A stretch of DNA of 64,000 bases, from contig NC_092806.1 of the NCBI RefSeq assembly GCF_040954645.1, forward strand, positions 3,534,001 through 3,598,000, read 5' to 3'. A program made the position numbers and the translations under genes. Source of the DNA: Diabrotica undecimpunctata. Taxonomy: Eukaryota > Arthropoda > Insecta > Coleoptera > Chrysomelidae. The notes beneath the pieces were generated by a model. It did not search any database, was not told the DNA's origin, and saw nothing but the letters and a program-made list of their open reading frames with translations. Shown one piece after another: positions 30,188-47,365 of the stretch (position 1 is its first letter; each line of letters starts with the position of its first letter).

Positions 30188-31627
30188 GTAAGTATAGTAA
30201 TAAAAACTAAAATTTAATAAAATATTCCTATAGTTCTTACAATATATTATAGTCTTATAGAGTTAGGGATGTCGATCCATATTGCGACAAAAGAATCAAC
30301 AAAAATGCTGTGTTCATAAATAATTGTACAAAAATTTAGATGAAAACAAAGGAAATTATAGAAATTTTTGAATGAAATAAAAACAATTTCAACTCAAACA
30401 TCCTTAGGAAAAATTCTTTTGAAAGTGTCTTAGCTCGTCTATAACATTGTACTTTTTATTAAGTAGTCCTTTAGTATTTCAGGTGCCAAAATTCATAATC
30501 CTTTTTTGTTTGCCAAGTAGTCGTTGTTATGTACATCCAGTTTTAACTTTATAATAGTAACTTTAGCGGTCTAGCTCTACCCCCTCCCAAGGTTAACTGC
30601 ATAGCGTACACACATTTGTTCATCATTCATTGCAATCATTGCCCAGAGGTCACAACGTAGACTTGGGAATAGCATAACAGCACACACAACAACCATTTGA
30701 CCTGCTTAAAATCATTTATAACCTATTAAAAAATACATAAAATATATTTGCGAAGTATTCTCGCGAAACTCGCTTAGGAAATTGATTTTATGCCTCTAGT
30801 ATTAGTGCAATTGGATTCAACGCTCCCGGAGAATCAACGTTAATAATTATTCAAAGGCAATTTAGGTTTAGTAGCAAAATTACTTCGTATACCGATTCGT
30901 GTACTGAAACTTGATGATTTGGTAAACATTAGATGCAATATTTACCTGGATAACATTGCTTTGTGGTATTTGTAACGCAAATTGCGGATACAAACACCTT
31001 ATATAGCTAATTATTCAGGTACTCAATATACGATATGTTAATTCAATTCAACTGCAGTCAGTAGTCCAGACAAATTAAGATATTTTTTTACCACCAAAAA
31101 TGAGATGTTTTAATCAAATAATGTTTCAAATATAATATAGATATCTTAATTCGCATACCGGCCAACTTCATTTGAACAAATTTTTTAGAACGACAGCTAC
31201 TGACGACAAAAATTACAATCCAGTTGGTTGATAATATCATTACCTATTATTTTTGCCAATACATTATCGTTTATACAATGATCCAGACCACATTAGGGCA
31301 TTTTAAGCAGTTATCCAATTTTCTTTTACAGGAAAAATACGTACTATTGGAGTTAGCTGGTACGCTATAATCCCATATTGCTGTGAAGAGAGCAGAACCT
31401 TCGAGATTATATAAAAAATATAAACATGAAAAACTGTACAAGTTTGTTTTTATAGATGAAACTTGATCTATGGATCTATATGTCGCTTCTGGCAAGATGA
31501 GAATTAAAATGTGTAGAATCTATTAAAACTGATGGAAAACCGTAATATATGTATATTCACCATAATAACCGTAATCATATTGAAAACATGAAGGCGTTGA
31601 AATATTTTTTTTGTAGATATATTATAG
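30188..31627. other. intron 3 sequence before the Polinton
   Basis: AT-rich, no gene or transposon recognised. Ends with TATTAT (31622-31627), the left copy of the Polinton target duplication. Confidence 0.4.
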
Positions 31628-31660
31628 TAGATAGATAGAGTTCCTTCTGGAGCGGAAGTG

Positions 31661-32890
31661 ACGTCACACGTCGATCGTCAAGCGTACGTATCCTCATGGG
31701 TCAAGGCCACGCCCCCCTCGTGACGTAGGAACGTGCCTAGGGTCTCGAGGCCACGCCCCTCGACCAATGGTGACGTAGGAACGTACCTCGTGTCTCTAGA
31801 CCACGCCCCTCGGCCAATGGTGGCGTAGGAACGTCCCCCCATGTCTTGCTGACCAATGGTGGACGTCCTCGTGACGTCGGAACGTGTCGTCGACCAATGG
31901 CAGCATAGCAGCGTCAGTGGTGGGAATAGCAACACCCCCAGCGACCAATGACAGCTCAGAATTTGAATAAACATCATAGAAATGGCGGTATAGCGATGAG
32001 GGACCAATGGTGACATAGTAACGCCCTCCTCGTGACGTCGGAACGTGTCGTCGACCAATGACAGCATAGCAGCGTCAGTAGTGGGAATATCAGGCCAATG
32101 GTGGCATAGTAACGCCCTCCTCGTGACGTCGGAACGTGTCGTCGACCAATGACAGCATAGCAGCGTCAGTGGTGGGAATAGCAGGCCAATGGTGGCATAG
32201 TAACGCCCTCCTCGTGACGTCGGAACGTGTCGTCGACCAATGACAGCATAGCAGCGTCAGTGGTGGGAATAGCAGGCCAATGGTGGCATAGGAACGTCCC
32301 CCAATGTCTTGCTGACCAATGGAGGACGTCCTCGTGACGTCGGAACGTGTCGTCGACCAATGACAGCATAGCAGCGTCAGTGGTGGGAATATCAGGCCAA
32401 TGGTGGCATAGGAACGTCCCCCAATGTCTTGCTGACCAATAAAGGACGTCCTCGTGACGTCGGAACGTGTCGTTGACCAATGGCAGCATAGCAGCGTCAG
32501 TGGTGGGAATAGCAACACCCCCAGCGACCAATGACAGCTTAGAATTTGAATAAACAACATAGAAATGGCGGTATAGCGATTAGGGACCAATGGTGACATA
32601 GTAACACCCTCCTCGTGACGTTAGAACGTTTTCCTCGACCAATGATGCCACAGAAACGTGTCCTCGACCAATGGTGGACATCCTCGTGACGTTGGAGGCC
32701 AATGGTGTGCATCAACGGCCAATGAGAAAGACGTGCATCGACTAATGGTGGAGTCGTACCACAATATTAACGAAAAGACGCCCCCAGTCCCCCCCATTCC
32801 CCGAAAAAACGCTCCCAGTCCCCCCATTCCTCCCGAAAAGACGCCCCCCCAATAATAACAAAGCTACACGTCCAACGTAACCAATGAGAA
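31661..32890. promoter_or_regulatory. TIR array of CCAAT boxes and TGACGT sites (left copy)
   Basis: A full CRE palindrome TGACGTCA lies at 31661-31668, followed by CCACGCCCC boxes. About 24 CCAAT pentamers (mostly GACCAATGG, GGCCAATGG or GACCAATGAC) and roughly a dozen TGACG(T) sites occur between 31745 and 32890. They are arranged in tandem units of 91 bp (GAACGTGTCG at 32041, 32132, 32223) and 120 bp (32223, 32343, 32463). CCAAT is the NF-Y core and TGACGTCA the CREB/ATF core in animals. A promoter/enhancer role is inferred. Confidence 0.65.
32765..32855 (-). repeat. G-rich tandem block in TIR, G-quadruplex-prone
   Basis: Two and a half units of about 38 bp (CCCCCCATTCC..CGAAAA..ACGC(C/T)CCCAGTCC). 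On the minus strand there are repeated runs of 3-7 G separated by 1-15 bases. The mirror copy is at about 48724-48815 on the + strand. Confidence 0.7.
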
Positions 32891-33456
32891 CGATGTTCAA
32901 TCGCTGGTCGGTGACTGCGTTCTATGAATTGACAAAGAGAAGAAGACGAATGACAGACAAAGAGAGCCATTTTTCCTCGTATTTTTTTGTAATTAAAACC
33001 TACAACCATTAGCGTAAAACTTCTAAATTTTTTCAATTTATATTTTACGAGTTACCTCGTATATATTTTATCGATTACCATAATAACAAAAATTCGTTTA
33101 TTTTTCAATTTATACTTTACATGATCAGTTGAAATCTTTATAAAATATATCTTGCTACTGAGAATAATGACATCATCGGATACGCCGGCTATTAAAAATG
33201 TCTCACGCGATCACGATATATAGCCGGAAACACGTGCACATTCCAATTCGATTATTTAATGTAAGATAAAATATATTCTCTCATGGAGGCAGGAAGTTAA
33301 TAATTAAGCCCGGCATGTGATGCATAAATGAATAGTCTTACGAAATATTGCGCAACATAGTTTTAGCGTGGGAGAGGCAGGTGTGGAGAGGTAAGAAGAT
33401 ATAATTAAACGTGTTCATGTTCACAGCGTTATTTCGTAAAACGTAGTCATTACAAC

Positions 33457-34071
33457 ATGAACAGTGTGGAAGTAAGAGCCAAAAGTGAAATGATGCTGCT
33501 TAATACTTTGTATAATTTTGAGCATTTAAAAGTATTAGTTGGATTAAGTTCAGCTCGATCATTTGGACCAGGTGTTAAATTAAGCAGCGAGAATAATGAG
33601 ATATCGTTCGGTATATGTGATTGGATCCAATTCATCGATGAACTTAATCGTAAATATAATCAGTTTTTCCTGATGCCTCTGCAATGCTATTGTGAAGATG
33701 AACATCCAGAATGTTGTGAATTGTTAGCAATTGAAACTCAAGCGACAGATCAACTTAAATGGCTCAATGTTAAGAAACTTGGTGTTACTTTGCAGATATT
33801 TGAAAAAGATGTTAAAAATCTTATTGAAGGAAATGAAAAGTTAATTTTACCACGCATTCGTTTTCTCGAAGGACTGAGATTTTTAGATTACTATTGCAAT
33901 GCGTTAAAAATTGCTACTTCATTCAAAAACGATTTACAACCAATAGACATTTTATATTCATTTTGTGAGGCTTCTTGTGATACTAGTATTGTAAGTTTAT
34001 CATTAAGGGAATATTTGTATTATTATAAGGAAGATACAATTAGTGAATTAAATAACAGTATTTTTGAATAA
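33457..34071 (+). CDS. Polinton unknown protein A (204 aa), paralogue of 42492-43211
   Basis: First gene inside the left TIR; ATG at 33457, stop overlapping an AATAAA at 34067-34072. Not a family I can name. It contains VGLSSARSFG near residue 28, an ISFGICDWIQFI segment, a Cys-rich patch (CYCEDEHPECC) and the C-terminal motif FCEAS..DT...SLREYLYYYK. These positions match the gene at 42492 (VGLSPARHF, ISLNTFEWDDII, FCEIS..DT...ALREYLYYYK), so the two are paralogues. No membrane segment or signal peptide. Position next to the TIR suggests transcription from TIR signals. A function in host interaction is only a guess. Confidence 0.85.
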   Translation: MNSVEVRAKSEMMLLNTLYNFEHLKVLVGLSSARSFGPGVKLSSENNEISFGICDWIQFIDELNRKYNQFFLMPLQCYCEDEHPECCELLAIETQATDQLKWLNVKKLGVTLQIFEKDVKNLIEGNEKLILPRIRFLEGLRFLDYYCNALKIATSFKNDLQPIDILYSFCEASCDTSIVSLSLREYLYYYKEDTISELNNSIFE

Positions 34072-34172
34072 AGGATTAAAACATTTATTTCTATTTATTA
34101 TACCAGGGTAGTGGGGGTGATTAAGAATATTATTTATATTGGCTTTTGGAGCGAAAGACATTTATTTCATCG

Positions 34173-34364
34173 ATGACTTCCATACGGTGTAGATTAGAAG
34201 AGTTGTACGAAAAAATACAAAAGTTAAAAGCCGATATACAGTGGTACGAAGATAGAACTGCAATTGAAAAACGATTTGCAGAGTTTAATTTGTCAGAAAG
34301 AAAGTTACCAAAAACAACACAATACCCGTTAAAAAGAATTCAACCGACAAGATGCCTCCACTAA
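34173..34364 (+). CDS. small coiled-coil protein (63 aa)
   Basis: ATG at 34173 begins MTSIRCRLEELYEKIQKLKA, a highly charged heptad-like helix, followed by a basic C-terminus. Its last 13 bp overlap the start of the next gene (ATG 34352). The size, overlap and composition suggest a real small Polinton gene, but there is no recognisable family. A TTG-initiated extension to 34146 is possible but unlikely in a eukaryote. Confidence 0.5.
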   Translation: MTSIRCRLEELYEKIQKLKADIQWYEDRTAIEKRFAEFNLSERKLPKTTQYPLKRIQPTRCLH

Positions 34365-34777
34365 CAACCTCATTCATCATCCTTACAGCTATTGTTAACA
34401 ATGTCCTTTATACAAACGTTCCAAACAACGTTAAGAACCAGGCGATATGTTTTAATGATGAAAAAACTGATTGTAATCGACCGAACTGGACTCTAATGGA
34501 TCATGAAGTGGTGAATTATGGACAGCTTCCAGTATTTTTCAAAGCGATACCAAAATCAGGAGGAGCATTCTATAAGATCAAGCTAATATCCCCAAATAAC
34601 ACCGAAAGTGATTCAAAATGGTACAAAACTAATAATGATGACATCGATCAATATGGTTTATCGATTATACTCTTAAGTATTATATTCGTAATAAATGCCT
34701 TTATAGCGATTAATATCATTAAAAAATTTCTTGTAAATCGTAAATGCGAATCATCTTGCATTAAAATAAATATGTAA
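34352..34777 (+). CDS. Polinton membrane protein (141 aa)
   Basis: N-terminal hydrophobic stretch (about residues 4-20, possible signal peptide), a polar middle with two Cys and an Asn-rich part with an N-x-T site (NNTES), then a strong membrane helix (about residues 106-127, LSIILLSIIFVINAFIAINI) and a short basic tail. This is a type I membrane topology with the body outside. It could be an envelope or virion membrane component; function unknown. AATAAA signals follow at 34787 and 34798. Confidence 0.6.
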   Translation: MPPLTTSFIILTAIVNNVLYTNVPNNVKNQAICFNDEKTDCNRPNWTLMDHEVVNYGQLPVFFKAIPKSGGAFYKIKLISPNNTESDSKWYKTNNDDIDQYGLSIILLSIIFVINAFIAINIIKKFLVNRKCESSCIKINM

Positions 34778-34786
34778 AACTGTTAA

Positions 34787-34820
34787 AATAAAACTAAAAT
34801 AAAACTTTTAATCTTTTATT
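34787..34820. terminator. convergent polyadenylation signals
   Basis: Between the stop codons of the convergent genes at 34777 and 34837 there are AATAAA on + (34787-34792 and 34798-34803) and on the minus strand (TTTATT at 34815-34820). A compact back-to-back 3' end. Confidence 0.6.
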
Positions 34821-34836
34821 AAAAAAAAAATCCAAT

Positions 34837-35328
34837 TTATATAGGTAATATTTTGTTACACAGCCATTGACGGAGGTGATCCACATTTATCGAGGAGCAG
34901 GAAAATAGTCCAGTAGCGTGGCAGTTGTATTCATGTGGAGCAAAGCCTCCAGTGGAGTATGGAGAATCATCAAACTTGCAAACATCAATAATTATGGGAC
35001 AGACGTCAAGCATATAACATTTGTATCTTAAAAATTCTGCTTGTTGTTCTCCGCGAACGTAGATGTAGTCAGCTGCATACAACAACTTAGATTCCAGTAT
35101 TTTATTTATTTTTGAATATTTAACATCTCCATTAGAATACCGAAGACCATGCACGTTTTTCTCCAAGTACACAGCAGTCTTCTTATCTTGATTACTTAAT
35201 GTAGCAAACGGTTGTGGAGGTTTAAATATATAATGGCAATGTTTAAAGCCAATTTCAATGCTGAGTTCTTTGGGAACAAACCACCCATCTACGGTGAATC
35301 CTTGAATGTCAACTAATGCGATCCTCAT
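34837..35328 (-). CDS. conserved Polinton protein of unknown function (163 aa)
   Basis: Starts MRIALVDIQGF, with PKELSIEIGFKHCHYIFKPP next. Later it has NVHGLRYSNGDVKYSKI, YVRGEQQAEFLRYK and a C-terminal HEYNCHATGLFSCSSINVDH..LRQWL. I know this pattern from uncharacterised insect proteins often near transposons: a VDLQGF-like start, KEI, and a final H...CAL.NV..L..WL. The order Asp-(Glu)-...-His hints at a DEDDh exonuclease-like RNase H fold, but the key residues are not certain. Last gene of the leftward late block, after the major capsid gene. Confidence 0.75.
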   Translation of the reverse strand: MRIALVDIQGFTVDGWFVPKELSIEIGFKHCHYIFKPPQPFATLSNQDKKTAVYLEKNVHGLRYSNGDVKYSKINKILESKLLYAADYIYVRGEQQAEFLRYKCYMLDVCPIIIDVCKFDDSPYSTGGFAPHEYNCHATGLFSCSSINVDHLRQWLCNKILPI

Positions 35329-35373
35329 GATGGCTGATAGTATACTGAATTGGATATGATTGAATAAGTCAAG

Positions 35374-36627
35374 TTAAATGATATTTTTGATAACTTCAGT
35401 TAGAGGAAAGTATTCGAGTAGACTGTCGTGGACAATTAAACAGTACGCTCGAGTGCCTGCAGGAAAACCTTCATCTGCTTCGATTTCCAACTTAATATCA
35501 ACGGTTCCCGATCTAAATGACGTATCATCCTGTTTGGAGCAGTCGAAAGTAAACAAAGCATATTTTTTAAAAGCATTATAATCCAAGATTGGATGTTTTG
35601 TTGACGAATGAGTATAACTGGGAAAGAATTGGGTATAGTTGTAGTGAGCTATAGCATAATCATTTTTCGCAAAATCCAATTGCATTCTCTCGTTAGGCCA
35701 ATATTCACCATTAATAACCACTCGTACGCTGGACACCTTAATGTTATCGAATAACGTTGGATTGGCGTGAATGTCATCTCGTTTAGAAGTTTGAAAAGCT
35801 ACAATGACATAGCGTGGACGTTCAACAGCTGAAGTTGTCTTTACACTCCATATCTCACGTCGGGATCCAGCCGTAAGTGAAGGTAGTTCATTAAGTTCCC
35901 ATTTACGGAAAGGTATGGTTATCGGCGTATTATTCTTAATCGGAGTCATTAGGTCAATTTTCACATCGTCATTCGGAAAGACATGTTTGACCTTCAGTTC
36001 CATGCTGGTAACAGTTAAAGACACTGTTGTTGTTGTTGTGGCATTAGGTTCTTCCACTAAAATACTGTCTCTATCATTACGTGCTCGAACAAATCGAAAC
36101 ACTTGACGACCATAGGTTAATTTATTGTAATCGTTGAAAATGTTGAAAATATGTTTTATCGGAATCAGTAAACTAAAGCTGTCTCCCGATAAATGTGGAT
36201 TATTGGGATAGTTCCATCCTGCAGTACTGAGATACTTGGAATCGTCAGGAGTGTAACACAACAAACTGCGAATAGTGCTAACTACACCAGGATCTCGAAC
36301 TATTTCCATGTCGTGTGAACTTTGGATGTATGTACATGTATCAAACAAGAAGGCTCCAGCATTCGGTGCAAGAGAAACAGTTCCAGTACCCACTTTCTTT
36401 ATACTTCCTTTAATTTCCAAAAGTGTTTCGTGTATGGCAAAAAATGCATCTGATTGATTGATGATAAACTCGACAACGTCGCTATTATTAAATGACTTGA
36501 TGTAAGGTGTATATGTACGAAATTCTTCTTTTCTAATAGTATCGTCGAACTGAGGTTTCTGGTACAGATCTAAAATAGGTGGTTGAGGTTCCTGAACCTG
36601 TCGTCGAATGTATTGACGTTTTGACAT
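35374..36627 (-). CDS. major capsid protein (double jelly-roll, hexon-like), 417 aa
   Basis: ATG at 36627 (MSKRQYIRRQ), 417 residues. Motifs shared with adintovirus/Polinton hexons are FRFVRARND, ITIPFRKWELNELPSL, RYVIVAFQTSKRDD, NGEYWPNERM and LFTFDCS, followed by a beta-rich C-terminus. The double jelly-roll fold would form trimeric capsomers of an icosahedral capsid. The gene lies between the penton-like gene and the 163-aa unknown in the leftward morphogenesis block. Its first 95 bp overlap the small ORF 36533-36754. No breaks seen. Family call rests on recognised motifs; the fold is inferred. Confidence 0.9.
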   Translation of the reverse strand: MSKRQYIRRQVQEPQPPILDLYQKPQFDDTIRKEEFRTYTPYIKSFNNSDVVEFIINQSDAFFAIHETLLEIKGSIKKVGTGTVSLAPNAGAFLFDTCTYIQSSHDMEIVRDPGVVSTIRSLLCYTPDDSKYLSTAGWNYPNNPHLSGDSFSLLIPIKHIFNIFNDYNKLTYGRQVFRFVRARNDRDSILVEEPNATTTTTVSLTVTSMELKVKHVFPNDDVKIDLMTPIKNNTPITIPFRKWELNELPSLTAGSRREIWSVKTTSAVERPRYVIVAFQTSKRDDIHANPTLFDNIKVSSVRVVINGEYWPNERMQLDFAKNDYAIAHYNYTQFFPSYTHSSTKHPILDYNAFKKYALFTFDCSKQDDTSFRSGTVDIKLEIEADEGFPAGTRAYCLIVHDSLLEYFPLTEVIKNII

Positions 36628-36754
36628 CTTTTAGCTGTAATCCAATGGAAACGAGAAAGGCTTTATTGACAGCAGACACGTCACGTCGCTTGTAAGATTT
36701 GCGTGAGACTAATGGATATTGATGCGTAGAGCTTTGTTTTATAATTAAACCCAT
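36533..36754 (-). CDS. small basic protein (73 aa) between penton and capsid genes
   Basis: Its ATG follows the penton stop immediately (TAG then ATG, 36755/36754). The frame runs 222 bp and overlaps the start of the capsid gene by 95 bp in another frame. Composition is basic and Ser/Thr/Tyr-rich (SRKSYKRRDVSAVNK). It would otherwise leave a 127-bp gap in a gene-dense block. Family unknown; it could be a small structural protein or a chance frame. Confidence 0.45.
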   Translation of the reverse strand: MGLIIKQSSTHQYPLVSRKSYKRRDVSAVNKAFLVSIGLQLKDVKTSIHSTTGSGTSTTYFRSVPETSVRRYY

Positions 36755-37480
36755 CTATATCGTTTCCTTAAAATCCAAATGAAGTGTACTTTTCTCTCCT
36801 CTAAAGTTGACTGGTCTTAAATCTTGATCGAGTACGCTAACGGTAATGTTGGCAATTTCACGTATGCTATTGCTTACTGGTATGTATATAGGATTATGAG
36901 GACGTTCGTCAATAGAGAAACCAGGATCAACACTTATCGGAAAATGTAGAACGGTGTGCGCAGGTCTGTCCTCGTAAAAGGCTCCTTCGGTAATGTTGCA
37001 TTCAAAAAGTAGGCTCGATACTTTTATAATGTTTACAGGTTGGTCCGAAGAATGCATTTTTCCTGGCACCAATATTCTGTTTGATGAGAAACCCAATATT
37101 TTGCCGAGACTGTCATCTTTCTCGAAAGTAACAGCATGATCTTGACTAAAGATTTCACACTTGAGCGTATTGTTGTTGGGTCTTAAGATGAACTCATTAT
37201 CTCGAATCGAATTATATTTATCGATTAATGCGTTATAAATATACGTTTCGATATCGGTAATTTCATAAGATCCAGACGGAATATCGATGCTACACAACTT
37301 TTTTCGATCATTTTTCTCGTAGTAGTAAAACTTTTCGCCATCGATGTTTGGAATCGAATTAAATGTATGAAATCCCAACACTGCTACATAATACTGTCGG
37401 TTAGGGTCAAGCACAAGAGGTACTTGAGGAGTAAACGAAAACTCGTTGGAAGTACTTGTCAAGGTCAACAATCGAGACAT
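36755..37480 (-). CDS. penton-like minor capsid protein (241 aa)
   Basis: Start chosen at ATG 37480 (MSRLLTLTS), where similarity to the family begins; the longer frame from 37639 has no support upstream. Motifs are VPLVLDPNRQYYVAVLGF near the start, DIPSGSYEITDIETYI, RPNNNTLKCEIF, LGKILGFS, a FECNITEGAF stretch, and VNFRGEKSTLHLDF at the end. This is the single jelly-roll vertex protein of Polintons and adintoviruses. The SGSYEI and LRxNNNTLKxEI motifs are typical. Stop abuts the 73-aa ORF. Confidence 0.88.
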   Translation of the reverse strand: MSRLLTLTSTSNEFSFTPQVPLVLDPNRQYYVAVLGFHTFNSIPNIDGEKFYYYEKNDRKKLCSIDIPSGSYEITDIETYIYNALIDKYNSIRDNEFILRPNNNTLKCEIFSQDHAVTFEKDDSLGKILGFSSNRILVPGKMHSSDQPVNIIKVSSLLFECNITEGAFYEDRPAHTVLHFPISVDPGFSIDERPHNPIYIPVSNSIREIANITVSVLDQDLRPVNFRGEKSTLHLDFKETI

Positions 37481-37556
37481 GACTGATACATTTGAATAGG
37501 TGTATGAAATTAAATAGCAAAATATGTTAAAAATTCCTTTATTTATTCTTATACTG

Positions 37557-37781
37557 TTACAAATTTTTCTCATAATATGACACATTACAAAATACACATC
37601 TACTTTCCATATACATGCCGCAAACATCACTCCATTCATGTCTATTATAGTCTTTCTTGCAGGGTAAATAATATTCTAGTGCGCGACGAATATCTTGAGG
37701 TAGTTCATACCAAACAACGCTCGTTATATTTTTCATAAAAATGCAAATGACACTTCTCAATATATCGTTAGATGGTTCCAT
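37557..37781 (-). CDS. small Cys-rich protein (74 aa)
   Basis: ATG 37781 overlaps the last 14 bp of the protease frame, and the frame ends 76 bp before the penton start, so it fills the gap exactly. It has CKKDYNRHEWSDVCG and RCVFCNVSYYE, four spaced Cys with a CxxC that could bind zinc. Unknown function. Confidence 0.5.
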   Translation of the reverse strand: MEPSNDILRSVICIFMKNITSVVWYELPQDIRRALEYYLPCKKDYNRHEWSDVCGMYMESRCVFCNVSYYEKNL

Positions 37782-38136
37782 TGTAGAGAAACTTTAAACA
37801 AAGATGTCCACAGTTAATTTGGTTATAACTTTGATATTGGTCGTTATTGTAGAAAATTCTTCCACCGTTCAAGTAGGATACTAGTTCTCGTGGTGGTTTC
37901 AAGCAACCATATGAATCAAAGTACTCTATATCGTTGTTTATCTTTCTGTAAGCTACCCAATGTGTACCGGGGTTTGTGGAAATGTCGAGATTAATAATAG
38001 CACATTCATGTTTACGAGGGCTACGTGGTAAATTATCTCGCATGAACACGCCGCGGAAATTTGAAATTTTAAGTAGTTTAACAAATCTATTTAAATCCAC
38101 ATTGGTTAAAGGCCTATTAGGTAGCTTCAGCGGAAG
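37768..38136 (-). CDS. adenain-like cysteine protease, ATG-less, probable -1 frameshift product
   Basis: Catalytic pattern of adenovirus-type (C5/Ulp1-like) maturation proteases: GTHWVAY (His), EYFDSYG (Asp) and INCGHLCLKFL (Cys), with a Gln seven residues before the Cys for the oxyanion hole, as in adenain. It processes virion proteins. The family N-terminus (PLTNVDLNRFVKLLKI..FRGVFMRD) is present but has no ATG. The frame is open only from a stop near 38175, has GTG at 38100 and its first ATG after that motif. It overlaps the PLA2 gene and enters the -1 frame directly at the heptamer A AAA AAC (38142-38136). Translation as a PLA2-protease fusion is the simplest reading; GTG or splicing are alternatives. 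Confidence 0.85.
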   Translation of the reverse strand, partial: LPLKLPNRPLTNVDLNRFVKLLKISNFRGVFMRDNLPRSPRKHECAIINLDISTNPGTHWVAYRKINNDIEYFDSYGCLKPPRELVSYLNGGRIFYNNDQYQSYNQINCGHLCLKFLYNGTI

Positions 38137-38903
38137 TTTTTTGCCTTTTTTAAATATAATCCAAAGCCACCTTTAGCGTTTTTTCGCAGGTATAATCCTT
38201 TGCCTAGATGTTCCATTGCATTGTTGTGACGTTTATCTTCTTCTAGTTTCTTTTGAGCATTCTTTGAATCGATAACAGTTTTCGCTATCGCGCTTGCGCC
38301 CCCAGCGAGGCTTCCGAGAGCTGATAGGCCTGCAAAGATTGGGATTAAAGGTAAAATCCCACCAGATTTTGGTTCAAATGGAATAATTCTTGGAACACGT
38401 ACATTTTTCTTCCCACCTACATTCTTAACGGCTGTTCTAGCTGCTGCAAGTGCAAGTAGAGCGGATTTACGCAGATTTGGTGACGGAGGAGCACGTTTCA
38501 ATGTTTTGATAATTGGCTGTAACACATGTCGCTTAAATGAACCAACACCTTTACCACGTTTCATACCCATACCCAGTTTTCGTTTAGCTTTCATTGCTGT
38601 AGTAGTTAACCAGGCAGCGGTTTTTTCACCCAAAGATGCGTCTTTTGCTTTAACTCGTTCCCACGCTTTATTTTCCAACACCCAATCTGCTTTATGTCGA
38701 TCTTTCAATGAATTACTTTGGGAATATGCGAGATCGTGATCTCTCGCAGCTCGATCTAACGGATTTATCCCCGGATCTCCACGAGCTAGACGTTTCTGTA
38801 ATTTAGTTCCAGGTCCTAGATATTGGTAACCAGGAGCATGCAATTCAAACGGTAGACTATTGATCAGAGAATTCAACACTCCTTCACCTTGAACGATCAA
38901 CAT
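38127..38903 (-). CDS. minor capsid-like protein with parvovirus-type PLA2 domain (258 aa)
   Basis: ATG 38903. Residues 20-60 form a viral phospholipase A2 core: YQYLGPGTKL (calcium loop) and DRAARDHDLAY (catalytic His56-Asp57). PLA2 domains of this type open endosomal membranes in parvoviruses and occur in adintovirus-like elements. The middle is very basic (KAKRKLGMGMKRGKG), followed by a Gly/Ala hydrophobic segment (about 195-226) and a basic C-terminus (LYLKKAKNFR). The layout resembles adenovirus core/pVI-type proteins. The stop lies 6 nt after an A AAA AAC slippery heptamer. Starts 23 bp from the divergent ATPase gene. Confidence 0.85.
   Translation of the reverse strand: MLIVQGEGVLNSLINSLPFELHAPGYQYLGPGTKLQKRLARGDPGINPLDRAARDHDLAYSQSNSLKDRHKADWVLENKAWERVKAKDASLGEKTAAWLTTTAMKAKRKLGMGMKRGKGVGSFKRHVLQPIIKTLKRAPPSPNLRKSALLALAAARTAVKNVGGKKNVRVPRIIPFEPKSGGILPLIPIFAGLSALGSLAGGASAIAKTVIDSKNAQKKLEEDKRHNNAMEHLGKGLYLRKNAKGGFGLYLKKAKNFR
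38136..38142 (-). promoter_or_regulatory. candidate -1 ribosomal frameshift site (A AAA AAC)
   Basis: On the minus strand the PLA2 codons GCA-AAA-AAC give the canonical X XXY YYZ heptamer in the right phase. Two codons later comes the PLA2 stop (TGA 38129-38127). A shift of -1 enters the protease frame, which lacks its own ATG. I cannot judge the downstream RNA structure by eye; only short stems are visible (CCT..AGG, AGGCCT). Confidence 0.6.
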
Positions 38904-38926
38904 TGAAATGAATCGTTTTTTGAAAA
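38904..38926. promoter_or_regulatory. 23-bp divergent intergenic region
   Basis: Only 23 bp separate the ATGs of the PLA2 gene (minus) and packaging ATPase (plus). Any promoter must sit inside the coding sequences, or one or both true start sites lie elsewhere (ATG 38972 is an option for the ATPase). Confidence 0.5.
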
Positions 38927-39658
38927 ATGTCTTTATATAACCATGTGTACAAAATACATCTCAATCACAAGATGAAGGTCATTCAACAAGACAAGACACT
39001 AGCAGTGGAAAACTTGGATTTTGTCGACAACGTGACAAGAACCAGCAAACATGGTGCATTGCTACCACATTCATTTCGTGCTATCATATGTGGTCCAAGC
39101 GGATGTGGAAAAACTAATGTTATGTTGGCATTACTTTTTGACCTGAATGGCGCTAAATTCAAAAATGTTTACGTTTATTCAAAGTCGTTGTTTCAACCCA
39201 AGTATCAATTTTTGAAGGAAGTGTTGGAGTCTGTGAAAGAAGTAGGTTATTTTCCATTTAAAGATAATGATGATGTTATAAGCCCAAGTAAAGCTAAACC
39301 AAACTCAATATTCATATTTGATGACGTATCAACGGATCCACAACAAACAATACGTGAATATTACTGTATGGGTAGACATAAAGACATTGATTGTGCATAC
39401 CTATGTCAATCATACAGTCGAGCAGGCAAACAACTTTTACGTGATAATGCGAATCTTATTGTATTGTTTAAGCAAGATGAGCTCAATTTGAAACACGTCT
39501 TTGATGACCACGTATCACCTGATATGACATTTGAGCAATTTAAACAATTTTGTTCCGAATGTTGGAAGGACAAATACGGTACATTCGTCATTGTTAAGGA
39601 TTTCGATATTTCTAACGGACGATATCGTAAAGGTTTCGACAAGTTTATAAAACTGTAG
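38927..39658 (+). CDS. FtsK/HerA-type genome packaging ATPase (243 aa)
   Basis: Walker A CGPSGCGKTNVM at residues 55-66, Walker B SIFIFDDVSTD (D132, D133), then a sensor region CMGRHKDIDCAYLCQSYSRA. These are the marks of the A32-like packaging ATPases of Polintons, adintoviruses and NCLDV. It pumps DNA into the capsid. Starts at ATG 38927; an internal ATG (residue 16, MKVIQQDK) is a plausible alternative. The stop is followed by a 2-bp gap and the next ATG. Complete. Confidence 0.93.
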   Translation: MSLYNHVYKIHLNHKMKVIQQDKTLAVENLDFVDNVTRTSKHGALLPHSFRAIICGPSGCGKTNVMLALLFDLNGAKFKNVYVYSKSLFQPKYQFLKEVLESVKEVGYFPFKDNDDVISPSKAKPNSIFIFDDVSTDPQQTIREYYCMGRHKDIDCAYLCQSYSRAGKQLLRDNANLIVLFKQDELNLKHVFDDHVSPDMTFEQFKQFCSECWKDKYGTFVIVKDFDISNGRYRKGFDKFIKL

Positions 39659-39660
39659 GT

Positions 39661-40776
39661 ATGATCGAAAAACACGCATTGTATAACAATATGTCAGACA
39701 AAGAGGTAGCTGCGCGCACGCGTAAAGTTGCCGAACTAGCTCGTGTCATTCGCAAAAAGTATTTGGCATTAAAGTTAGGTAAAACAGAACAAGATGAGTC
39801 GCTAAATAAACTCTTTAAGCCCATAGCTAAACCTCTAACAGATATTGCGCAATCGTCAAAAACGTTGCATCATGCTATTAATAACAAGCTTAGACACGTT
39901 AAAAAAGAAGAGGTGAAAACGGAGGAAGAGATAAAAAAAGAAGCCAGAGATGACGATGTATTTTCCGATGCAGTATCAATCGATCAAGTTAACGAACATG
40001 ATATATTTGATCCTAATAATGTTTCGAAAGAGGCTATTGATGAATATATCGAGCAATATCCTCCAATGAGCCATAAGTATATAAAAGAATTTTGGATGAA
40101 AGATAATAAAATTGATAAAAACTACGGACCTATTTACAATGATGAAATTGGCTGGATGTTGGGTAAACGACGAATAAACTTTAACAAAAACAAAGGTAGT
40201 ATACAAGTCATCAGTGATGGTAGTGGGGAAGGAGGATGGGTGCCGGGAACGCCAGGTCTATACCAACTAATTTTCTATGATAACCCTGAAGATTATAATG
40301 ATACAGATTTAAAGCACTATAAAAGTTTATTAAATAGTACAGAAGTTCATCTGGATACCAAAGGTCGTCTTAAAGGTGCAACTGGGAAAAAATATCATCA
40401 TATTATCAAACCGCTATTTAAACCTACCGATGAAACAACAAAGAAATCGCCACCGAAAACTCGATCTACTGCATTAAAGAGACAACCTTTCGAAGGTCTT
40501 GTTCGTTTAGCAAAAACGACTCGTTCATCATCGATGACAACGTCTCCTCGAACATCGTTATCTTCACCATCTAGCTCCAAAGGGTCAGGGCTCGTCGATA
40601 ATTCTCATTTGATCTACAACGATAATCCTATTGAATATGTATATTGGGATGATCCAAACGAACTATGCGACAGACTCAAATTGCTGGTTGCTTCCCAAGA
40701 AGCAGGAAACACATCTCACAATAATGAAATTGTTGCCATTATCAACGAATTACGTGAAGCAGATATTATATATTAA
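39661..40776 (+). CDS. conserved Polinton structural-like protein, unknown (371 aa)
   Basis: N-terminal helical, charged region with an acidic/basic linker (residues 80-110). The middle holds the recognisable WVPGTPGLYQLIF...P.DYNDTDLKHYKSLL segment and GATGKKYHHIIKPLF (residues about 195-258), then a Ser/Thr-rich low-complexity tail. The GxxGLxxLIF...DLxxYxxIL...T..HxxxxG.....KY..II.P pattern recurs in uncharacterised proteins of insect Polintons, always near the ATPase, but I know no assigned function. The hydrophilic tail fits a virion or scaffolding role. Complete. Confidence 0.85.
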   Translation: MIEKHALYNNMSDKEVAARTRKVAELARVIRKKYLALKLGKTEQDESLNKLFKPIAKPLTDIAQSSKTLHHAINNKLRHVKKEEVKTEEEIKKEARDDDVFSDAVSIDQVNEHDIFDPNNVSKEAIDEYIEQYPPMSHKYIKEFWMKDNKIDKNYGPIYNDEIGWMLGKRRINFNKNKGSIQVISDGSGEGGWVPGTPGLYQLIFYDNPEDYNDTDLKHYKSLLNSTEVHLDTKGRLKGATGKKYHHIIKPLFKPTDETTKKSPPKTRSTALKRQPFEGLVRLAKTTRSSSMTTSPRTSLSSPSSSKGSGLVDNSHLIYNDNPIEYVYWDDPNELCDRLKLLVASQEAGNTSHNNEIVAIINELREADIIY

Positions 40777-40806
40777 TGTTTGGATTATTGGAACATCATT
40801 TCCAAC

Positions 40807-41406
40807 ATGAGTGTTGACAAGTTTGGTCGTCATCATTACCGTTCTAATGAACAAGTTGTTAAAAAGCTACGTGAAGGCTTAAAGCAATCCATTTTGGATT
40901 TACAAAACCAGATACATGAAGTACATAAAGACATTACACGAGATCCTCCTGTAGCAGGTAATCATCTTTCCAATAAGAAATATGTAGATGACAGCATTGT
41001 TCGTGCGAAAACTTTTCTAAGAAAAGAGATTAATTTGATACAAAAAAATAGAATTCAAAAAGATACTCAACTCGAACAAAAAATCTCAAACTCCATTAGT
41101 AAAATAGAAGTTAATTTAAGTAAAAAAGTTAACGAGTTGTCTGATGAGAATAAAATGACTGCTTCGAAAATATCTGATTTATCAAAACAAATGCATGAAT
41201 TTAAAAATGATCTTGATATATTTAAACAAGAAATGACGAAGAATATTACAGATGCCGCCAACCAAAATGCACAAATTATGATGAAAACGTTGGAAATAGA
41301 AAAAAAGATTAAAACGGCGGATCTTAATTCACATGATTTAGATGAGCGTCTTAATGTAATGGAAGATTACCTCTTACATAATAAAGCCAACGGAACAACG
41401 AATTAG
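40807..41406 (+). CDS. coiled-coil, fibre-like protein (199 aa)
   Basis: Start set at ATG 40807; a TTG extension to 40780 is unlikely. Nearly the whole protein is predicted helix with heptad pattern (IHEVHKDITRD, then long Lys/Glu/Leu/Ile repeats to NVMEDYLLH). It includes VAGNHLSNKKYVDDSIV, which resembles the (N/D)HxxNKKYVD hinge of phage and viral tail-fibre proteins. It may form a trimeric spike on the penton-like vertex; inference from composition and motif. Located 30 bp after the 371-aa gene and 36 bp before integrase. Confidence 0.6.
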   Translation: MSVDKFGRHHYRSNEQVVKKLREGLKQSILDLQNQIHEVHKDITRDPPVAGNHLSNKKYVDDSIVRAKTFLRKEINLIQKNRIQKDTQLEQKISNSISKIEVNLSKKVNELSDENKMTASKISDLSKQMHEFKNDLDIFKQEMTKNITDAANQNAQIMMKTLEIEKKIKTADLNSHDLDERLNVMEDYLLHNKANGTTN

Positions 41407-41442
41407 CGTTAGTTCAAAGAATCGAATCGTTGGAAGCTAGAC

Positions 41443-42375
41443 ATGGCATTTACCGAGGAGAAGATACAACTAGTTAACGAGCTACACAAGCCTGCACGAA
41501 AAAATTATCCTCGTCGACGAACAATCATTAAAGGACTAGACGATTTGTGGCAAATGGACCTTGCTGAGATGAGGCCTTATGCCAGTCAAAATAAATCTTA
41601 CAAGCTCATTCTTGTTGTAATTGATTGTTTTTCAAAGTTTGTGTGGACTCGACCATTAAAGACGAAAACAGGGGAGGAAATTACTCGAACATTTTCGGAT
41701 ATTCTCGCTCATACTCGACGATGTCCGAAAAATTTACAAACAGACCAAGGCACAGAATTTTTCAATTCCAAGTTTCAAAATCTCATGAAAAAGCATAGTA
41801 TTAATCACTATAATACCTTTAGTGTTAAAAAAGCAGCCATATGTGAACGAGTTATTCGAACATTGAAGGAAAAACTTTACAAGTATTTCAGTCTTAATGG
41901 AACTTACAAATGGATTGATATCTTGCCTCAAATTACAAAAGAGTACAACAACACGAAACACAGCAAAATTCGACTTAGACCTATTGATGTTAATAAATCT
42001 AACGAAAATGAAATTTTACGAAAATATTATACTCACTTGAAAATTGCCGGTCCAAGAAAATTGAAAGTTGGTGACGTGGTTCGCATTAGTAAAAATAAAC
42101 ACATTTTCGATAAGGGATATAAACCGAATTGGACAACAGAACTGTTTAAAATTACTGAAATTAAAATAACGAATCCCACAACATACTTGATTGAAGATAT
42201 GACTGGAGCGCCTATCAAAGGAGCATTCTACGAAGAAGAATTACAGAAAACAAAAAATAAAGACATATATTTAGTAGAGAAAGTACTGCGCAGACGTGGA
42301 AATAAGATGTATGTTCAATGGTTGGGATTCGATAGTAGCCATAATAGTTGGATTAACGTTAAAGATATCATTTAG
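41443..42375 (+). CDS. retroviral-type integrase with C-terminal chromodomain (310 aa)
   Basis: Catalytic DDE triad in the rve core: WQMDLAEM (D39), LQTDQGTEFFN (D101) and ICERVIRTLK (E135). This is followed by an SH3-like segment (VGDVVRISKNKHIFDKGY) and a chromodomain in the last 35 residues (YLVEKVLRRRGNKMYVQWLG...NSWINV). It would cut and join the TIR ends, making the 6-bp duplication seen at both ends. The N-terminal zinc finger is not obvious. The chromodomain suggests targeting to methylated histones. Complete. Confidence 0.95.
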   Translation: MAFTEEKIQLVNELHKPARKNYPRRRTIIKGLDDLWQMDLAEMRPYASQNKSYKLILVVIDCFSKFVWTRPLKTKTGEEITRTFSDILAHTRRCPKNLQTDQGTEFFNSKFQNLMKKHSINHYNTFSVKKAAICERVIRTLKEKLYKYFSLNGTYKWIDILPQITKEYNNTKHSKIRLRPIDVNKSNENEILRKYYTHLKIAGPRKLKVGDVVRISKNKHIFDKGYKPNWTTELFKITEIKITNPTTYLIEDMTGAPIKGAFYEEELQKTKNKDIYLVEKVLRRRGNKMYVQWLGFDSSHNSWINVKDII

Positions 42376-42491
42376 GATCTACTTTTACATACACCGCGTA
42401 GATATACACTAAATGAGTGGGGGGTGACAAAAAGTATAAATTTCATATATGCTGCAAGCTCATGCCCAGTTGTTCCTGCCAGTTCATCAAT

Positions 42492-43211
42492 ATGAGTTCT
42501 CAAGATAGTGGTTATAGTTCATCAGACGATATGGTGGTAGCTGCTGCTTCACCATCAGATGATATCGATTATGAAGCTGAATTAGATGGAGTTTTGGCGA
42601 CATTCGAAGAAGCAGCCAAAAATGAACCATATTATTTACTAGAAGCATCCTTTCCGCTTGACAAGTGTATAATCAAAGTTGGCCTTTCTCCAGCTCGTCA
42701 TTTCTCATCAGCCATTATTTTGTGTCAGCACAACAAGAATGCAAGAATTAGTTTAAACACGTTCGAGTGGGATGATATAATCGGAATTTTTAAGCAGAAG
42801 ATTTGCGATTTCTTTAACAGCACCTCTCAAGATGATTACAATCCTATCGAGTTTCAGTGTGGAGACTATTGTAAAATTAAACAAATAGTGTATGATTCAA
42901 CCAAGTTCCTTGTTATTGAAAAGCATGGTCTGGAATACTATCTAGATGAAAGGGATGTCAACCAAATCCTAGAAGTAAACAGCAGTCTGGTGTGTCATCG
43001 TGTATCGTTATTGGATAATTTACACTTTCATGCTTATTATAGAAATGTTATCGATTTGATACAATCAAACTTTTGCAGCAGAAGCAGTTTATATGGACCA
43101 CTTGAAGCTTTAACTGCGTTTTGCGAAATTTCCACAGACACTTTGTTAAGTAATGCTTTAAGAGAATATTTATATTATTATAAAATTAAAGTTGTAAATG
43201 ATTTTATGTAA
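42492..43211 (+). CDS. Polinton unknown protein B (239 aa), paralogue of 33457-34071
   Basis: ATG 42492 (MSSQDSGYSSSDD) is preferred; ATG 42462 is in frame upstream. The acidic/Ser-rich N-terminus (about 45 residues) is absent from the paralogue. The shared part has IKVGLSPARHF, ISLNTFEWDDII, a GDYCKIKQI patch, ERDVNQILE and the C-terminal FCEISTDTLLSNALREYLYY. Located directly after integrase, the last rightward gene; AATAAA at 43219. Function unknown, not an enzyme I can recognise. The pair indicates an old duplication within the element. Confidence 0.82.
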   Translation: MSSQDSGYSSSDDMVVAAASPSDDIDYEAELDGVLATFEEAAKNEPYYLLEASFPLDKCIIKVGLSPARHFSSAIILCQHNKNARISLNTFEWDDIIGIFKQKICDFFNSTSQDDYNPIEFQCGDYCKIKQIVYDSTKFLVIEKHGLEYYLDERDVNQILEVNSSLVCHRVSLLDNLHFHAYYRNVIDLIQSNFCSRSSLYGPLEALTAFCEISTDTLLSNALREYLYYYKIKVVNDFM

Positions 43212-43495
43212 TAATCAAAATAAATGCTATTTATGCAAACATGTCTTTTTTATTTTCACGTTGAATGTCTCACAACGCTGGAAAAGATAAGCTGAGACTT
43301 AAAATTACAGGAAAACAATGTATATTTTTTAGAGTTTTTATTTTCTACTTATAATAATTACAAATGTTGATTTTCACTAAATTACAATTATCATTCTACA
43401 TATTCATTTAACAAATAGCCAATCCATTTTCGTGTGGAGATTGATAAAGCTATAAAAAAAAAATTGGTTATGTTTTCATTTATTAATTTTTGTTT
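43212..43495. terminator. convergent 3' ends of protein B and polymerase
   Basis: AATAAA on + at 43219-43224. TTTATT (minus-strand AATAAA) at 43479-43484 just after the polymerase stop. No ORF in between. Confidence 0.5.
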
Positions 43496-46400
43496 TTACT
43501 CAATCATTGTGGTTTCATAATGACCCCAAGGTAAAGTGTCATGAGAATTTTGTTGCAAGTAACGTTTATCGTCATACGGACTTAATGCAATTTTTTCTTG
43601 TGTTATTGTAAAAAGATCATGGGCGTAGGAACGAAACGTTGATTGGGAAACACTTTTAGTTGTAAATTCGTTTAAACACTTAACATAATCATCGAAAGTA
43701 ATGTCATTTTTTACCGTTGAATATTTTACACCCTTAGATTTTTTTGTGACGCCTAAATTATTTGCAAGTCTTTCAATATTTGCATCATCCATATTATTCT
43801 TGTATTTATCCCACAATGCATTTCGATCCTCATCCGTCGTACTAATCTTAAACGAATACATTTTAGATCTAAGTCCGACAAAATGAGTCATAATGCGACC
43901 GTTTGCCTCATCTTTCATCATTCCGAGAACTTTTTTGTTGACTTGAGGTATTCCATAAATATTATTCTCAGAATAGTCTGATGTATCGAATTTGGATAAA
44001 TTTGCTTTAATAACATCTCTGTAAACGTCATCACATTTTAATTCATAGATAAAACTATCAGTGTCCCCATACATTAGCTTACAATTTTCAACTCCCATAT
44101 ATGGCAGCATAAAGTTATAATGAAAATCGTACATACACACTTTGGATATATCTAAAATTGACATGCCGATGTACAATGGTTTGTTGAAAATGAGCTCTGT
44201 TTTGTTAAGTTCGATTGCCATTAAATTTTCATTAAACACAGTTCTATTATGAAATCTTGGACTAGCAATCAAATTTTTCGCTCCATATCTTCCATCCCAT
44301 TTTGATACAAGTTTTACAATGCGATGTTTCCTAATGTTTTCCATCGTTTTACCAAATATGGCGTTATTGGCTAACTTGTACAAGTCTTTTTCAAATGCTG
44401 TAGTTGCTGCAGTTCGCAATTTTGTATTAAGATCGATATATGGCTTAAGCCAAGCGCTCTGTTTGAATTTCAACACTTTATGGATTTTTGTTAGTTTGAG
44501 TCCTGCATTCAGAGCTTGTTTTAGATTGCGATAATGCAAAGTGTACTCTTTTTTATGGTACAAGGTGGTCATAAGTTTTGGAAGCTTACTTCTTGGTGGC
44601 ACACGATGTTCGCAACAAAACGGTAAATCTCGATGTAAGTCATGCAAGTGTTCTGGGTATTCCAAATCCACTTGTAGTATGTATCCTGTATCTCCATCGT
44701 CAGGAATAGACAAGACATCAATATTGGTATCGACCCACTCGAAACCCCCATATGGTAAGAATTGAGACATTGCCCAACCATACAAATTGTTGACATCTAA
44801 ATATAGCACATATTTACTAGGCTTTGATGGATCATAATTATGCATGTATTTGTTATTTGCCTCAGAATACCGATTACTTACTTGACTTATACCACCTCGG
44901 ATAGCTTTCTCAATAAACATGATTTTATCGATATCATTCAGCAGTTCAAGTTTACATCCAGTATATTTAAGCATTGCATCCCAAGAAAATCCAGGCATGG
45001 TATAGTACCATGCAGGATCAAGACTGTATGTACTTCGACGTTTTTGTCGAAAATTTTCAAAAATGCAAGTCAGTAACATAATATCAGTTTTCATGTACAA
45101 CATACTATATTCCAAAATATTTTTAATACCGAATGACTGCCAAACATTCTGAGCATGATGATACATATTTTTGGAGATGTGTTCACCCGATAATGAGCTG
45201 TAAAATTTATCAATTGATGGTAGTTGCGTTTCATTCAATTTATTGAAAGACTCAATATATTCGTATGGGAATATGCCTTTTCGTTTCAATAATTCCATTT
45301 GTTCGGGAGTGGTATTTGGAAATTCGCTAGCTAAATATCTTAAATCCTCAGGTTGCAATGTGGCAGCCAACTTGTCCAATGATGAATTTAAAAATCTCAG
45401 TGAATCAACGAACCTCAACTTAATACTGACCTCAGAATCGTATATTGTAAATGAAATATACTTTTCCTTATTTATTGGTAGTAAGCTGATACTACCATTT
45501 TTCGCAAGATCTCTAATCATCATATGCGAATCGTAACCGCTAAGATTATGAAAAAAAATTGGGACAACGAAAAGTTTTTTGAAATTTAAGTTACACACTT
45601 GGTGTGCGAGTCCTCGAAAATCTCCGGTAAAATGGTCATGATCACGAACAATTACATCCTTATCTGAAAACGTTTTTTCGCAAATGTGACAATTAGATGC
45701 ATTAAAACTGGGTGTGACATTCATAGGTACAATATCTTTAATTTTTCCTTGCACAAATGCCGCCAACAACGTCATTTCCTTGGCAAACCACTCCATGCAA
45801 TCTTCACCTGCGTAACTTCGGTAAAACGACAGAGATTCATCGTAAGAGCATTTTACGTAATAACCTGCACTAAAGGCTTTATGCTGCTGATACTTAATTG
45901 TTTTGCATTTTAATGGACTGTTTTTAACTTTGTTCAACATTGACTCAAAATCGGCATAGACTACAAAAGGAGTTGTTTGTTTATAAATATGATTTTTAAA
46001 TTCAACATTCTGATATGATGGAAAAGAAACTTTACATTCATTAATTTTCTCACAGTATTTTGCATGATCATTTAATCTGTCAAAACTACTAAAATAATTC
46101 AAACACCTATCACATAAAAATTTTTTATTACGGTTCTTACTTAACTGCCTGGACATAAGTCGAGACATATCTTTAATCATGCAATAATGATACTTAATTT
46201 CTACAGATTCATCGTGAGCCATAGGTGCTTCGTAGTCATTCAATTTTGGAAAATATTTATCTTGTACAATCAATAAATTTACATGTTTAGTTAATTTGGT
46301 TTTGCATAGCCTTACCGGCGTTGTTACGTAAAATGTTCTCTCTTTAGCAACATTCATTTCTAACCCGTACACGTTTACAGAAATATTATTTAACTTTTCA

Positions 46401-47305: not shown

Positions 47306-47365
47306 GATTAAGTAAAAAGCAATAAATCAATAAATGAAAAACTCACCAATATTTTTTTTTATCCT

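What the first reader, a model, noticed from the sequence alone, without database searches (positions are those of the whole stretch)
38100..38180. Protease of the Polinton appears to be made by -1 ribosomal frameshifting from the PLA2 gene
Seen directly: the adenain-like protease frame has no ATG before its conserved N-terminal region. It is open back into the PLA2 gene and lies in the -1 frame. The PLA2 codons GCA-AAA-AAC form the canonical slippery heptamer A AAA AAC (38142-38136), two codons before the PLA2 stop. Established: A AAA AAC is the classic heptamer used in retroviral gag-pro frameshifting to make low levels of protease fused to a structural protein. In adenovirus the protease needs a peptide cofactor from the C-terminus of protein VI. 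Inference: a Polinton uses the same expression logic, and a fusion would bring protease and a basic, pVI-like C-terminus together. I know of no described case in Polintons.
Basis: partly seen in the sequence, partly recalled or inferred. Interest (0 to 1): 0.9.

Follow-up and report, generated by a model that had tools for sequence, protein, structure and literature searches.

The report
Polinton protease made by ribosomal frameshifting
In this beetle virus-like transposon the capsid-maturation protease has no start codon of its own and is very probably made, as in retroviruses, by ribosomes slipping back one base at the end of the gene in front, a trick that sequence comparison suggests is shared by many related elements.

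Summary
On the minus strand the adenain-like protease frame (38172-37768) is open only from just inside the end of the PLA2 gene (38903-38127), lies in the -1 frame, and has no ATG before residue 44. The slippery heptamer A AAA AAC (38142-38136) is in phase two codons before the PLA2 stop. It is no accident of one copy: the 30 best-ranked family-1 loci and the 30 best-ranked loci of a second family in the same genome all keep the heptamer and lack an ATG (CTG or ATA, in other subfamilies TTG, at the usual start position). Of the 120 best PLA2 homologues, 109 end in x-K-N plus 0-2 residues. There the 0-frame residues vary almost only among those that keep the -1 reading K-K-L-P: a dual-coding signature. 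A minority of copies, and some relatives, have PLA2 and protease in one frame. No stable downstream RNA structure was found in family 1, and no experiment exists. Best explanation: -1 programmed frameshifting giving a low-level PLA2-protease fusion. A 2024 preprint suggested slippery sites in adintovirus penton and hexon-adenain, not here. New variant of a known kind.

The parts
38127..38903 (-). PLA2 gene (258 aa, parvovirus-type phospholipase A2 domain plus hydrophobic and basic C-terminal part)
   Evidence: Pfam PF08398 E 1.6e-10; 91% identical to a Diabrotica virgifera protein, P0121
38136..38142 (-). slippery heptamer A AAA AAC, in phase with PLA2
   Evidence: the 30 best-ranked family-1 loci (the window's own among them) and the 30 best-ranked family-2 loci keep it
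38127..38129 (-). PLA2 stop codon TGA, overlapping the protease-frame codon CTG (38130-38128), where other subfamilies have TTG or ATA
37768..38172 (-). open -1 frame containing the adenain-like protease (134 codons plus stop); after a slip the protease part begins at 38136
   Evidence: adenain 1avp by profile, E 2.2e-5; adenain 1nln by fold, E 2.6e-6
38041..38043 (-). first ATG in the protease frame (residue 44), at the end of strand E39-44 and after the conserved N-terminal helix
38173..38175 (-). upstream -1-frame stop TAA that closes the overlap
38145..38151 (-). A AAA AAG, a possible second slippery site, not conserved
   Evidence: A AAG AAG in subfamilies 1b and 1c
31626..49951 (.). whole Polinton, bounded by inverted repeats of about 1,755 nt that are 100% complementary and by the 6-bp target-site duplication TATTAT (31620-31625, 49952-49957)
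   Evidence: rve integrase, A32-type ATPase and double-jelly-roll capsid domains

Best explanation
Ribosomes translating PLA2 reach GCA AAA AAC with tRNA-Lys in the P site and tRNA-Asn in the A site. A minority slip back one base, so that both tRNAs re-pair on AAA AAA, and go on in the -1 frame with L-P-L-K-L-P..., bypassing the PLA2 stop (junction ...A-K-N-L-P-L-K..., by the recalled rule of simultaneous slippage). The result is mostly PLA2 and a smaller amount of PLA2-protease fusion, which delivers the protease into the particle at low dose, like retroviral Gag-Pro. Shown here: the ORF layout, the phase, the absent ATG, the conservation and the dual coding. Inferred: that slippage happens, its rate, the packaging role and any later self-cleavage.
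For: Heptamer, phase and missing ATG confirmed. Kept in 30 of 30 best-ranked family-1 and 30 of 30 best-ranked family-2 loci, none with an ATG in the first 60 nt of the -1 frame after the PLA2 GFGLYL motif. Subfamilies 1a, 1b, 1c and 1d (1d is one copy) have TTC, TCC, TAC and TCC after AAA AAC (Phe, Ser, Tyr, Ser in PLA2), always a Leu codon (CTT, CTC, CTA, CTC) in -1. Of 120 PLA2 homologues 109 end xKN plus 0-2 aa (P0138 removed). Of those 109 the residue before KN can have an A-ending codon in 109, the next residue or stop fits a TNN codon in 105, and of 65 with a second tail residue 64 fit CNN. On a tree 49 of 53 changes at the first position stay in the TNN class, against 0.64 expected for one-step changes, P about 2e-6 if changes are independent. 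Controls: other KN dipeptides are followed by a TNN-class residue in 41 of 244, an upstream GLYLRKN in 2 of 23. Of 19 protease homologues (of the best 120) with 5 or more residues before LPxxAL and no PLA2 part, 12 have K-K-L there. KKLPxKLP also appears in annotated fusions P0138, P0188, and residues 11-20 are modelled at pLDDT 92. In-frame fusions occur: P0043, P0063, P0088, P0099, and 10 of 60 hand-picked copies of this genome, so a fused product is plausible.
Against: No expression data. No stable nested structure follows the heptamer in family 1 (z -0.7 to 1.4; z -0.12); family 2 has a local hairpin (z about -3.4 for 40 nt, about -1 for 80-110 nt), so no shared stimulator is known. Pseudoknots were not tested. 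Many relatives may have ATG or GTG overlapping the PLA2 stop (second tail residue Q), which would also allow reinitiation. 7 of the 19 extended proteases lack K-K-L. 10 of the 120 PLA2 proteins lack the terminal KN. Some fusions may be errors: P0063 is 96% identical to P0214, which ends KNFQ. Outside the genome of the window only protein sequences could be read.
Confidence: 0.85

Rival explanations
1. Translation of the protease restarts at the codon overlapping the PLA2 stop (CTGA here, possibly ATGA or GTGA in many relatives), by stop-coupled reinitiation or near-cognate initiation.
For: 84 of the best 120 predicted homologues have fewer than 5 residues before LPxxAL, many being called as starting MKLP exactly there. 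Of 66 PLA2 tails with a second residue, it is Q in 43, which with a TGA stop allows ATG or GTG.
Against: The codon is CTG, TTG or ATA in the families read as DNA; ATA is a poor initiator. In 16 of those 66 tails the second residue is H, which excludes ATG. 6 of the 8 JGI-derived proteases do not begin with M, though some may be partial. It does not explain conservation of the heptamer and of the -1 reading upstream of that codon.
Confidence: 0.08
2. RNA polymerase slippage on the A-run adds one A (or drops two) in some transcripts, fusing the frames.
For: Family 2 has an A8 run; genomic copies with one A more are in-frame fusions.
Against: The window has only A6 runs, and the copies of its family that were read mostly keep a C before the run of six. 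Slippage of transcripts would need neither the fixed phase xxA AAA AAC, consistent with 109 of 120 relatives, nor a run as short as six.
Confidence: 0.04
3. A spliced mRNA supplies an ATG exon to the protease frame.
For: NCBI gene models in Exocentrus and Aethina run from PLA2 into protease, some apparently through predicted introns (P0242, P0243, P0167); AAG|CTACC could serve as an acceptor in both families.
Against: The stretch before that AG is purine-rich (by eye); splicing there would not conserve the -1 reading upstream. That gene predictors bridge frames with introns is recalled.
Confidence: 0.03

Closest known systems
Retroviral gag-pro -1 frameshifting at A AAA AAC (MMTV, HTLV type; recalled)
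   Same: same heptamer and phase, protease in the -1 frame of a particle protein, stop codon just downstream
   Different: DNA transposon/virus, unrelated cysteine protease, PLA2/pVI-like partner instead of Gag, no pseudoknot or stem shown
Hypothetical slippery sites in adintovirus penton and hexon-adenain ('Hexain'), PMC11071296 (passages read)
   Same: same virus group, -1 frameshift, adenain fusion proposed in the hexon case
   Different: other partner genes; KnotInFrame prediction called hypothetical; PLA2-protease not mentioned in the passages seen
Adenovirus adenain (peptidase C5)
   Same: fold; His, acid, Gln and Cys residues; role inferred
   Different: a review reports 'no hint of recoding' in adenovirus (PMC8310308, passage); its cofactor peptide is cut from protein VI (recalled)
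Spodoptera Mavericks with PLA2 ('CAP') and PRO genes, PMC5803895 (passages)
   Same: insect Polintons with the same pair of genes
   Different: described as separate ORFs; frameshift expression of PRO not mentioned in the passages seen

Membership tests
-1 programmed ribosomal frameshift cassette | X XXY YYZ heptamer in the 0-frame phase within the overlap | tested here: met
-1 programmed ribosomal frameshift cassette | downstream ORF in -1, open through the heptamer, lacking its own start | tested here: met
-1 programmed ribosomal frameshift cassette | conservation across divergent relatives with dual coding | tested here: met
-1 programmed ribosomal frameshift cassette | stimulatory RNA structure 5-9 nt downstream | tested here: inconclusive
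   none in family 1, local hairpin in family 2; pseudoknots not tested
-1 programmed ribosomal frameshift cassette | measured frameshift product | not testable with these tools
   no expression or protein data held
Adenain (peptidase C5) | adenain fold and sequence profile | tested here: met
   Pfam PF00770 matches 12 of 23 aligned members at E 0.01 but not the window protein itself
Adenain (peptidase C5) | catalytic His, acidic residue, Gln, Cys (set recalled) | tested here: met
   H71, D86, Q114, C121 invariant in 23 sequences
Polinton/Maverick (adintovirus-like) | rve integrase, A32-type ATPase, double-jelly-roll capsid protein, PLA2 | tested here: met
Polinton/Maverick (adintovirus-like) | protein-primed PolB | tested here: inconclusive
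   of polymerase-type domains Pfam found none in the 1,276-aa ORF, only Endonuclease_7 above its cut-off; a YGDTDS motif is seen by eye
Polinton/Maverick (adintovirus-like) | long terminal inverted repeats and 6-bp target-site duplication | tested here: met

The most novel reading that the evidence does not exclude
A large clade of insect Polintons independently evolved retrovirus-like Gag-Pro logic: -1 frameshifting at A AAA AAC sets a low ratio of PLA2-protease fusion to free PLA2, packages the protease through its membrane-active partner, and gives it a built-in basic cofactor peptide, the counterpart of adenovirus pVIc, before it cuts itself free.
Probability: 0.35. Interest if true: 0.9.

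Novelty: new variant of a known kind. Interest (0 to 1): 0.76.

Why it matters
A 2021 review says relatively few eukaryotic DNA viruses are known to use frameshifting (PMC8310308, passage). A clade-wide case in Polintons would show that the Gag-Pro dosing solution arose again in a lineage related to adenoviruses. It would explain why protease genes of these elements look start-less or are annotated inconsistently, and supply a testable signature (x-K-N near the PLA2 stop, the -1 reading K-K-L-P at the protease N-terminus). It also suggests how protease could enter particles of such elements.

Tried and rejected
Rejected: sequencing error or decay of one copy (60 of 60 best-ranked loci agree; one of them is the window itself). 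Rejected: A AAA AAG as the main site (not conserved). Rejected: initiation at the first in-frame ATG, which would remove the conserved N-terminal helix and most of the first strand. Led nowhere: IMG/VR and GTDB scans with protease queries gave no relative; a PLA2 scan of IMG/VR gave one distant contig, L031, in whose ORFs of 90 aa or more I recognised no protease. RNA folding gave no common stimulator. The search for fused proteins with P0188 gave 5 rows, all Exocentrus. The model of the fusion P0063 has low confidence in the PLA2 tail.

Slips of mine: one search used hand-copied contig lengths to pair genes (pairs not used as evidence); one search read PLA2 out of phase (redone); one search anchored family-2 rows on an earlier motif, and one search printed minus-strand family-2 rows unreversed (both redone); one search included one wrong row and was not used; the motif mis-hit P0003, P0043 and P0063, which I left out by hand, together with the fusions P0088 and P0099, to reach 19 of its 24 rows.

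Full report
What is there. The window holds a Polinton, 31626-49951, with terminal inverted repeats of about 1,755 nt that are 100% complementary and a 6-bp target-site duplication TATTAT. Pfam finds an rve integrase, an A32-type ATPase, a double-jelly-roll capsid protein and a PLA2 domain. The assembly (1.74 Gb) holds at least 40 matches of about 100% identity to the PLA2-protease junction, the window's own included (40 of 381 candidates scored). The best PLA2 relative is from Diabrotica virgifera, 91% identical, so the host is probably a related leaf beetle (inference).

The observation. PLA2 (38903-38127, minus strand) ends ...TTA AAA AAG GCA AAA AAC TTC CGC TGA. The protease frame is -1 to it, open from 38172 to 37768, and has no ATG before 38043. 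A AAA AAC sits at 38142-38136 in the slippery phase. The protein is adenain-like: a profile of 23 relatives matches 1avp at E 2.2e-5, covering query residues 21-129; the AlphaFold2 model has mean pLDDT 89.8 and its best solved match is 1nln at E 2.6e-6; H71, D86, Q114 and C121 are invariant. Hmmscan of the window protein alone gave no Pfam match. Residues 11-20 (KKLPLKLPNR), which straddle the usual predicted start, have mean pLDDT 92; the first 10 have 63.

Conservation as DNA. The 30 family-1 loci (the window among them) all keep heptamer, phase and missing ATG, with GCA or ACA before AAA AAC. A second family in the same genome (copies 93% identical to query P0133, against 67% for family-1 copies) reads TTG AAA AAA AAC TTC CAA TAA AGC: PLA2 ends LKKNFQ, the -1 frame reads EKKLPIKLPNRPL, and the overlap codon is ATA. 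Its 30 best-ranked loci all keep the heptamer. Among 60 further copies picked by hand for divergence, long open frames or truncation, 42 have the heptamer and are not fused, 10 have PLA2 and protease in one frame (1 of these also keeps a heptamer), 7 have no in-frame heptamer and 1 could not be placed. In 4 of those 42 an ATG appears within 60 nt of -1 frame, each apparently through an indel or a truncation. By my count of the table, 8 of 105 full-length family-2 matches have an open frame of 391 codons or more (2 of the 8 with an internal stop). Frames joined by one extra A thus occur in both families, while the best-ranked, nearly identical copies keep the frames apart.

Dual coding. Subfamilies 1a, 1b, 1c and 1d (1d is one copy) differ after AAA AAC as TTC, TCC, TAC and TCC: Phe, Ser, Tyr and Ser in PLA2, always Leu in the -1 frame; the next -1 codon is CCG (Pro) in all four, and the overlap codon is CTG or TTG, both Leu. 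Single 1a copies depart (L102 and L120 have a Ser in place of that Pro). Upstream, A AAA AAG became A AAG AAG in 1b and 1c, so that site is not under the same constraint.

Conservation as protein. Of the best 120 of 1,711 PLA2 homologues, 110 match xKN plus 0-3 residues at the C-terminus; one of them, P0138, is a gene model that continues into protease and is removed, leaving 109. The residue before KN can have a codon ending in A in 109 of 109; the following residue or stop fits a T-first codon in 105 of 109; the second fits a C-first codon in 64 of 65. Background frequencies are 0.81, 0.22 and 0.26, so the first of these is weak evidence. On a tree of these proteins plus the window protein, 40 of 40 changes before KN stay A-compatible and 49 of 53 changes after it stay in the T-first class, including repeated moves to and from a stop; single-step codon change predicts 0.64, P about 2e-6 if the changes are independent. 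Other KN dipeptides in the same proteins are followed by a T-class residue in 41 of 244 and the upstream GLYLRKN in 2 of 23. The simplest reading is selection on the heptamer and on -1-frame L-(P) while the PLA2 tail itself drifts. On the protease side 84 of the best 120 of 683 homologues have fewer than 5 residues before LPxxAL and are silent; of 19 that reach further and carry no PLA2 part, 12 have K-K-L there and 7 do not. The species named among the PLA2 hits belong to Diabrotica, Leptinotarsa, Diorhabda, Exocentrus, Aromia, Aethina and Coccinella (beetles, recalled), besides one protein filed under a Rickettsia MAG of Sceptobius; most hits are unnamed contigs, so the host range beyond beetles is unknown.

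Exceptions. P0017 and P0029 look as if they start their protease at an ATG with no KKL. P0043, P0063, P0088 and P0099 carry PLA2 tail and protease in one frame without the KN stop; P0063 is 96% identical over the compared part to P0214, which ends KNFQ, so it may be an indel copy or an assembly error. P0138, P0188, P0242, P0243, P0198 and P0167 are annotated fusions, some apparently made by predicted introns. 10 of 120 PLA2 proteins lack terminal KN; three of them (P0167, P0188, P0198) are among these fusions.

Mechanism. Shown: layout, phase, missing ATG, conservation, dual coding. Inferred: simultaneous slippage of tRNA-Lys and tRNA-Asn, low efficiency, co-packaging of protease with the membrane-active PLA2 protein. 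Not shown: an RNA stimulator. Family-1 folds are no better than shuffles (z -0.7 to 1.4) and family 2 has one local hairpin (z about -3.4 for the 40 nt from +5, about -1 for 80-110 nt); pseudoknots were not examined. The basic tail of PLA2 could be the counterpart of the adenovirus pVI cofactor peptide (recalled), but the only model, of the fusion P0063, gives mean pLDDT 42 and 59 for residues 51-60 and 61-70.

Rivals. Reinitiation at the stop-overlap codon remains possible for relatives with ATG there, but not comfortably for CTG, TTG and ATA families, and it leaves the upstream conservation unexplained. Transcriptional slippage would not need the codon phase. Splicing cannot be excluded without RNA data. 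Misassembly and decay of a single copy are excluded by the other copies.

Literature. Searches: 'Polinton + frameshift + protease' (17 papers), 'adintovirus + frameshift' (of which 10 listed), two or more of 'ribosomal frameshift, Maverick, Polinton, adintovirus' (of which 40 listed), two or more of 'adintovirus, adenain, PLA2', three or more of 'programmed ribosomal frameshifting, DNA virus, adenovirus-like protease, protease' (of which 20 listed), 'ribosomal frameshift + Maverick', 'frameshifting + Polinton' (of which 2 listed). I looked at the passages around 'frameshift' in 10 papers: 8 of the 17 and 8 of the 10 listed; the others were not opened. The nearest is PMC11071296: possible -1 slippery sites in adintovirus penton and a similar relation for hexon-adenain. 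In the other nine the word concerns mutations, search settings or other viruses. PLA2-protease frameshifting was not seen in any listing or passage that I saw; the main adintovirus paper (doi 10.1093/ve/veaa055) is not held, so prior mention there cannot be ruled out. The few frameshift cases in eukaryotic DNA viruses and the lack of recoding in adenovirus are from passages of PMC8310308.

Verdict. The finding is real and its main interpretation is well supported by comparison, though not proved by experiment.

Noticed in passing
37781-37557, minus strand: Small ORF (74 aa, starts MEP, Cys-containing end) whose ATG overlaps the end of the protease gene; family 2 has a counterpart (MEPT..., LPC, CxFC) in the same place, so the next gene, unlike the protease, has its own ATG.
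   Followed up: partly
33409-34071 and 42417-43211, plus strand: Two ORFs of the same element are paralogues (31% identity over 208 columns, E 2e-23); function unknown.
   Followed up: partly
38184-38178, minus strand: A second in-frame A AAA AAC in PLA2, followed at once by a -1 stop, hence probably unproductive.
   Followed up: yes
L062-L069, L071, L108: Genomic copies in which PLA2 and protease lie in a single frame, mostly through one extra A; they occur in both families.
   Followed up: partly
family-2 loci L053 and L072, about 5-45 nt after the heptamer: A local hairpin stronger than shuffles (z about -3.4 for 40 nt), absent from family 1.
   Followed up: partly
31626-33380 and 48196-49951: The terminal inverted repeats contain internal repeats, read as ORFs of 137-192 aa with recurring CHWSTTRSDVTR; not studied.
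   Followed up: no
27506-28591, minus strand: A 361-aa transposase-like ORF outside the Polinton (DUF4817 and HTH domains), probably mariner/Tc-like.
   Followed up: no
protein P0238: A Polinton PLA2 is filed under a Rickettsia endosymbiont MAG of Sceptobius lativentris, probably host contamination.
   Followed up: no
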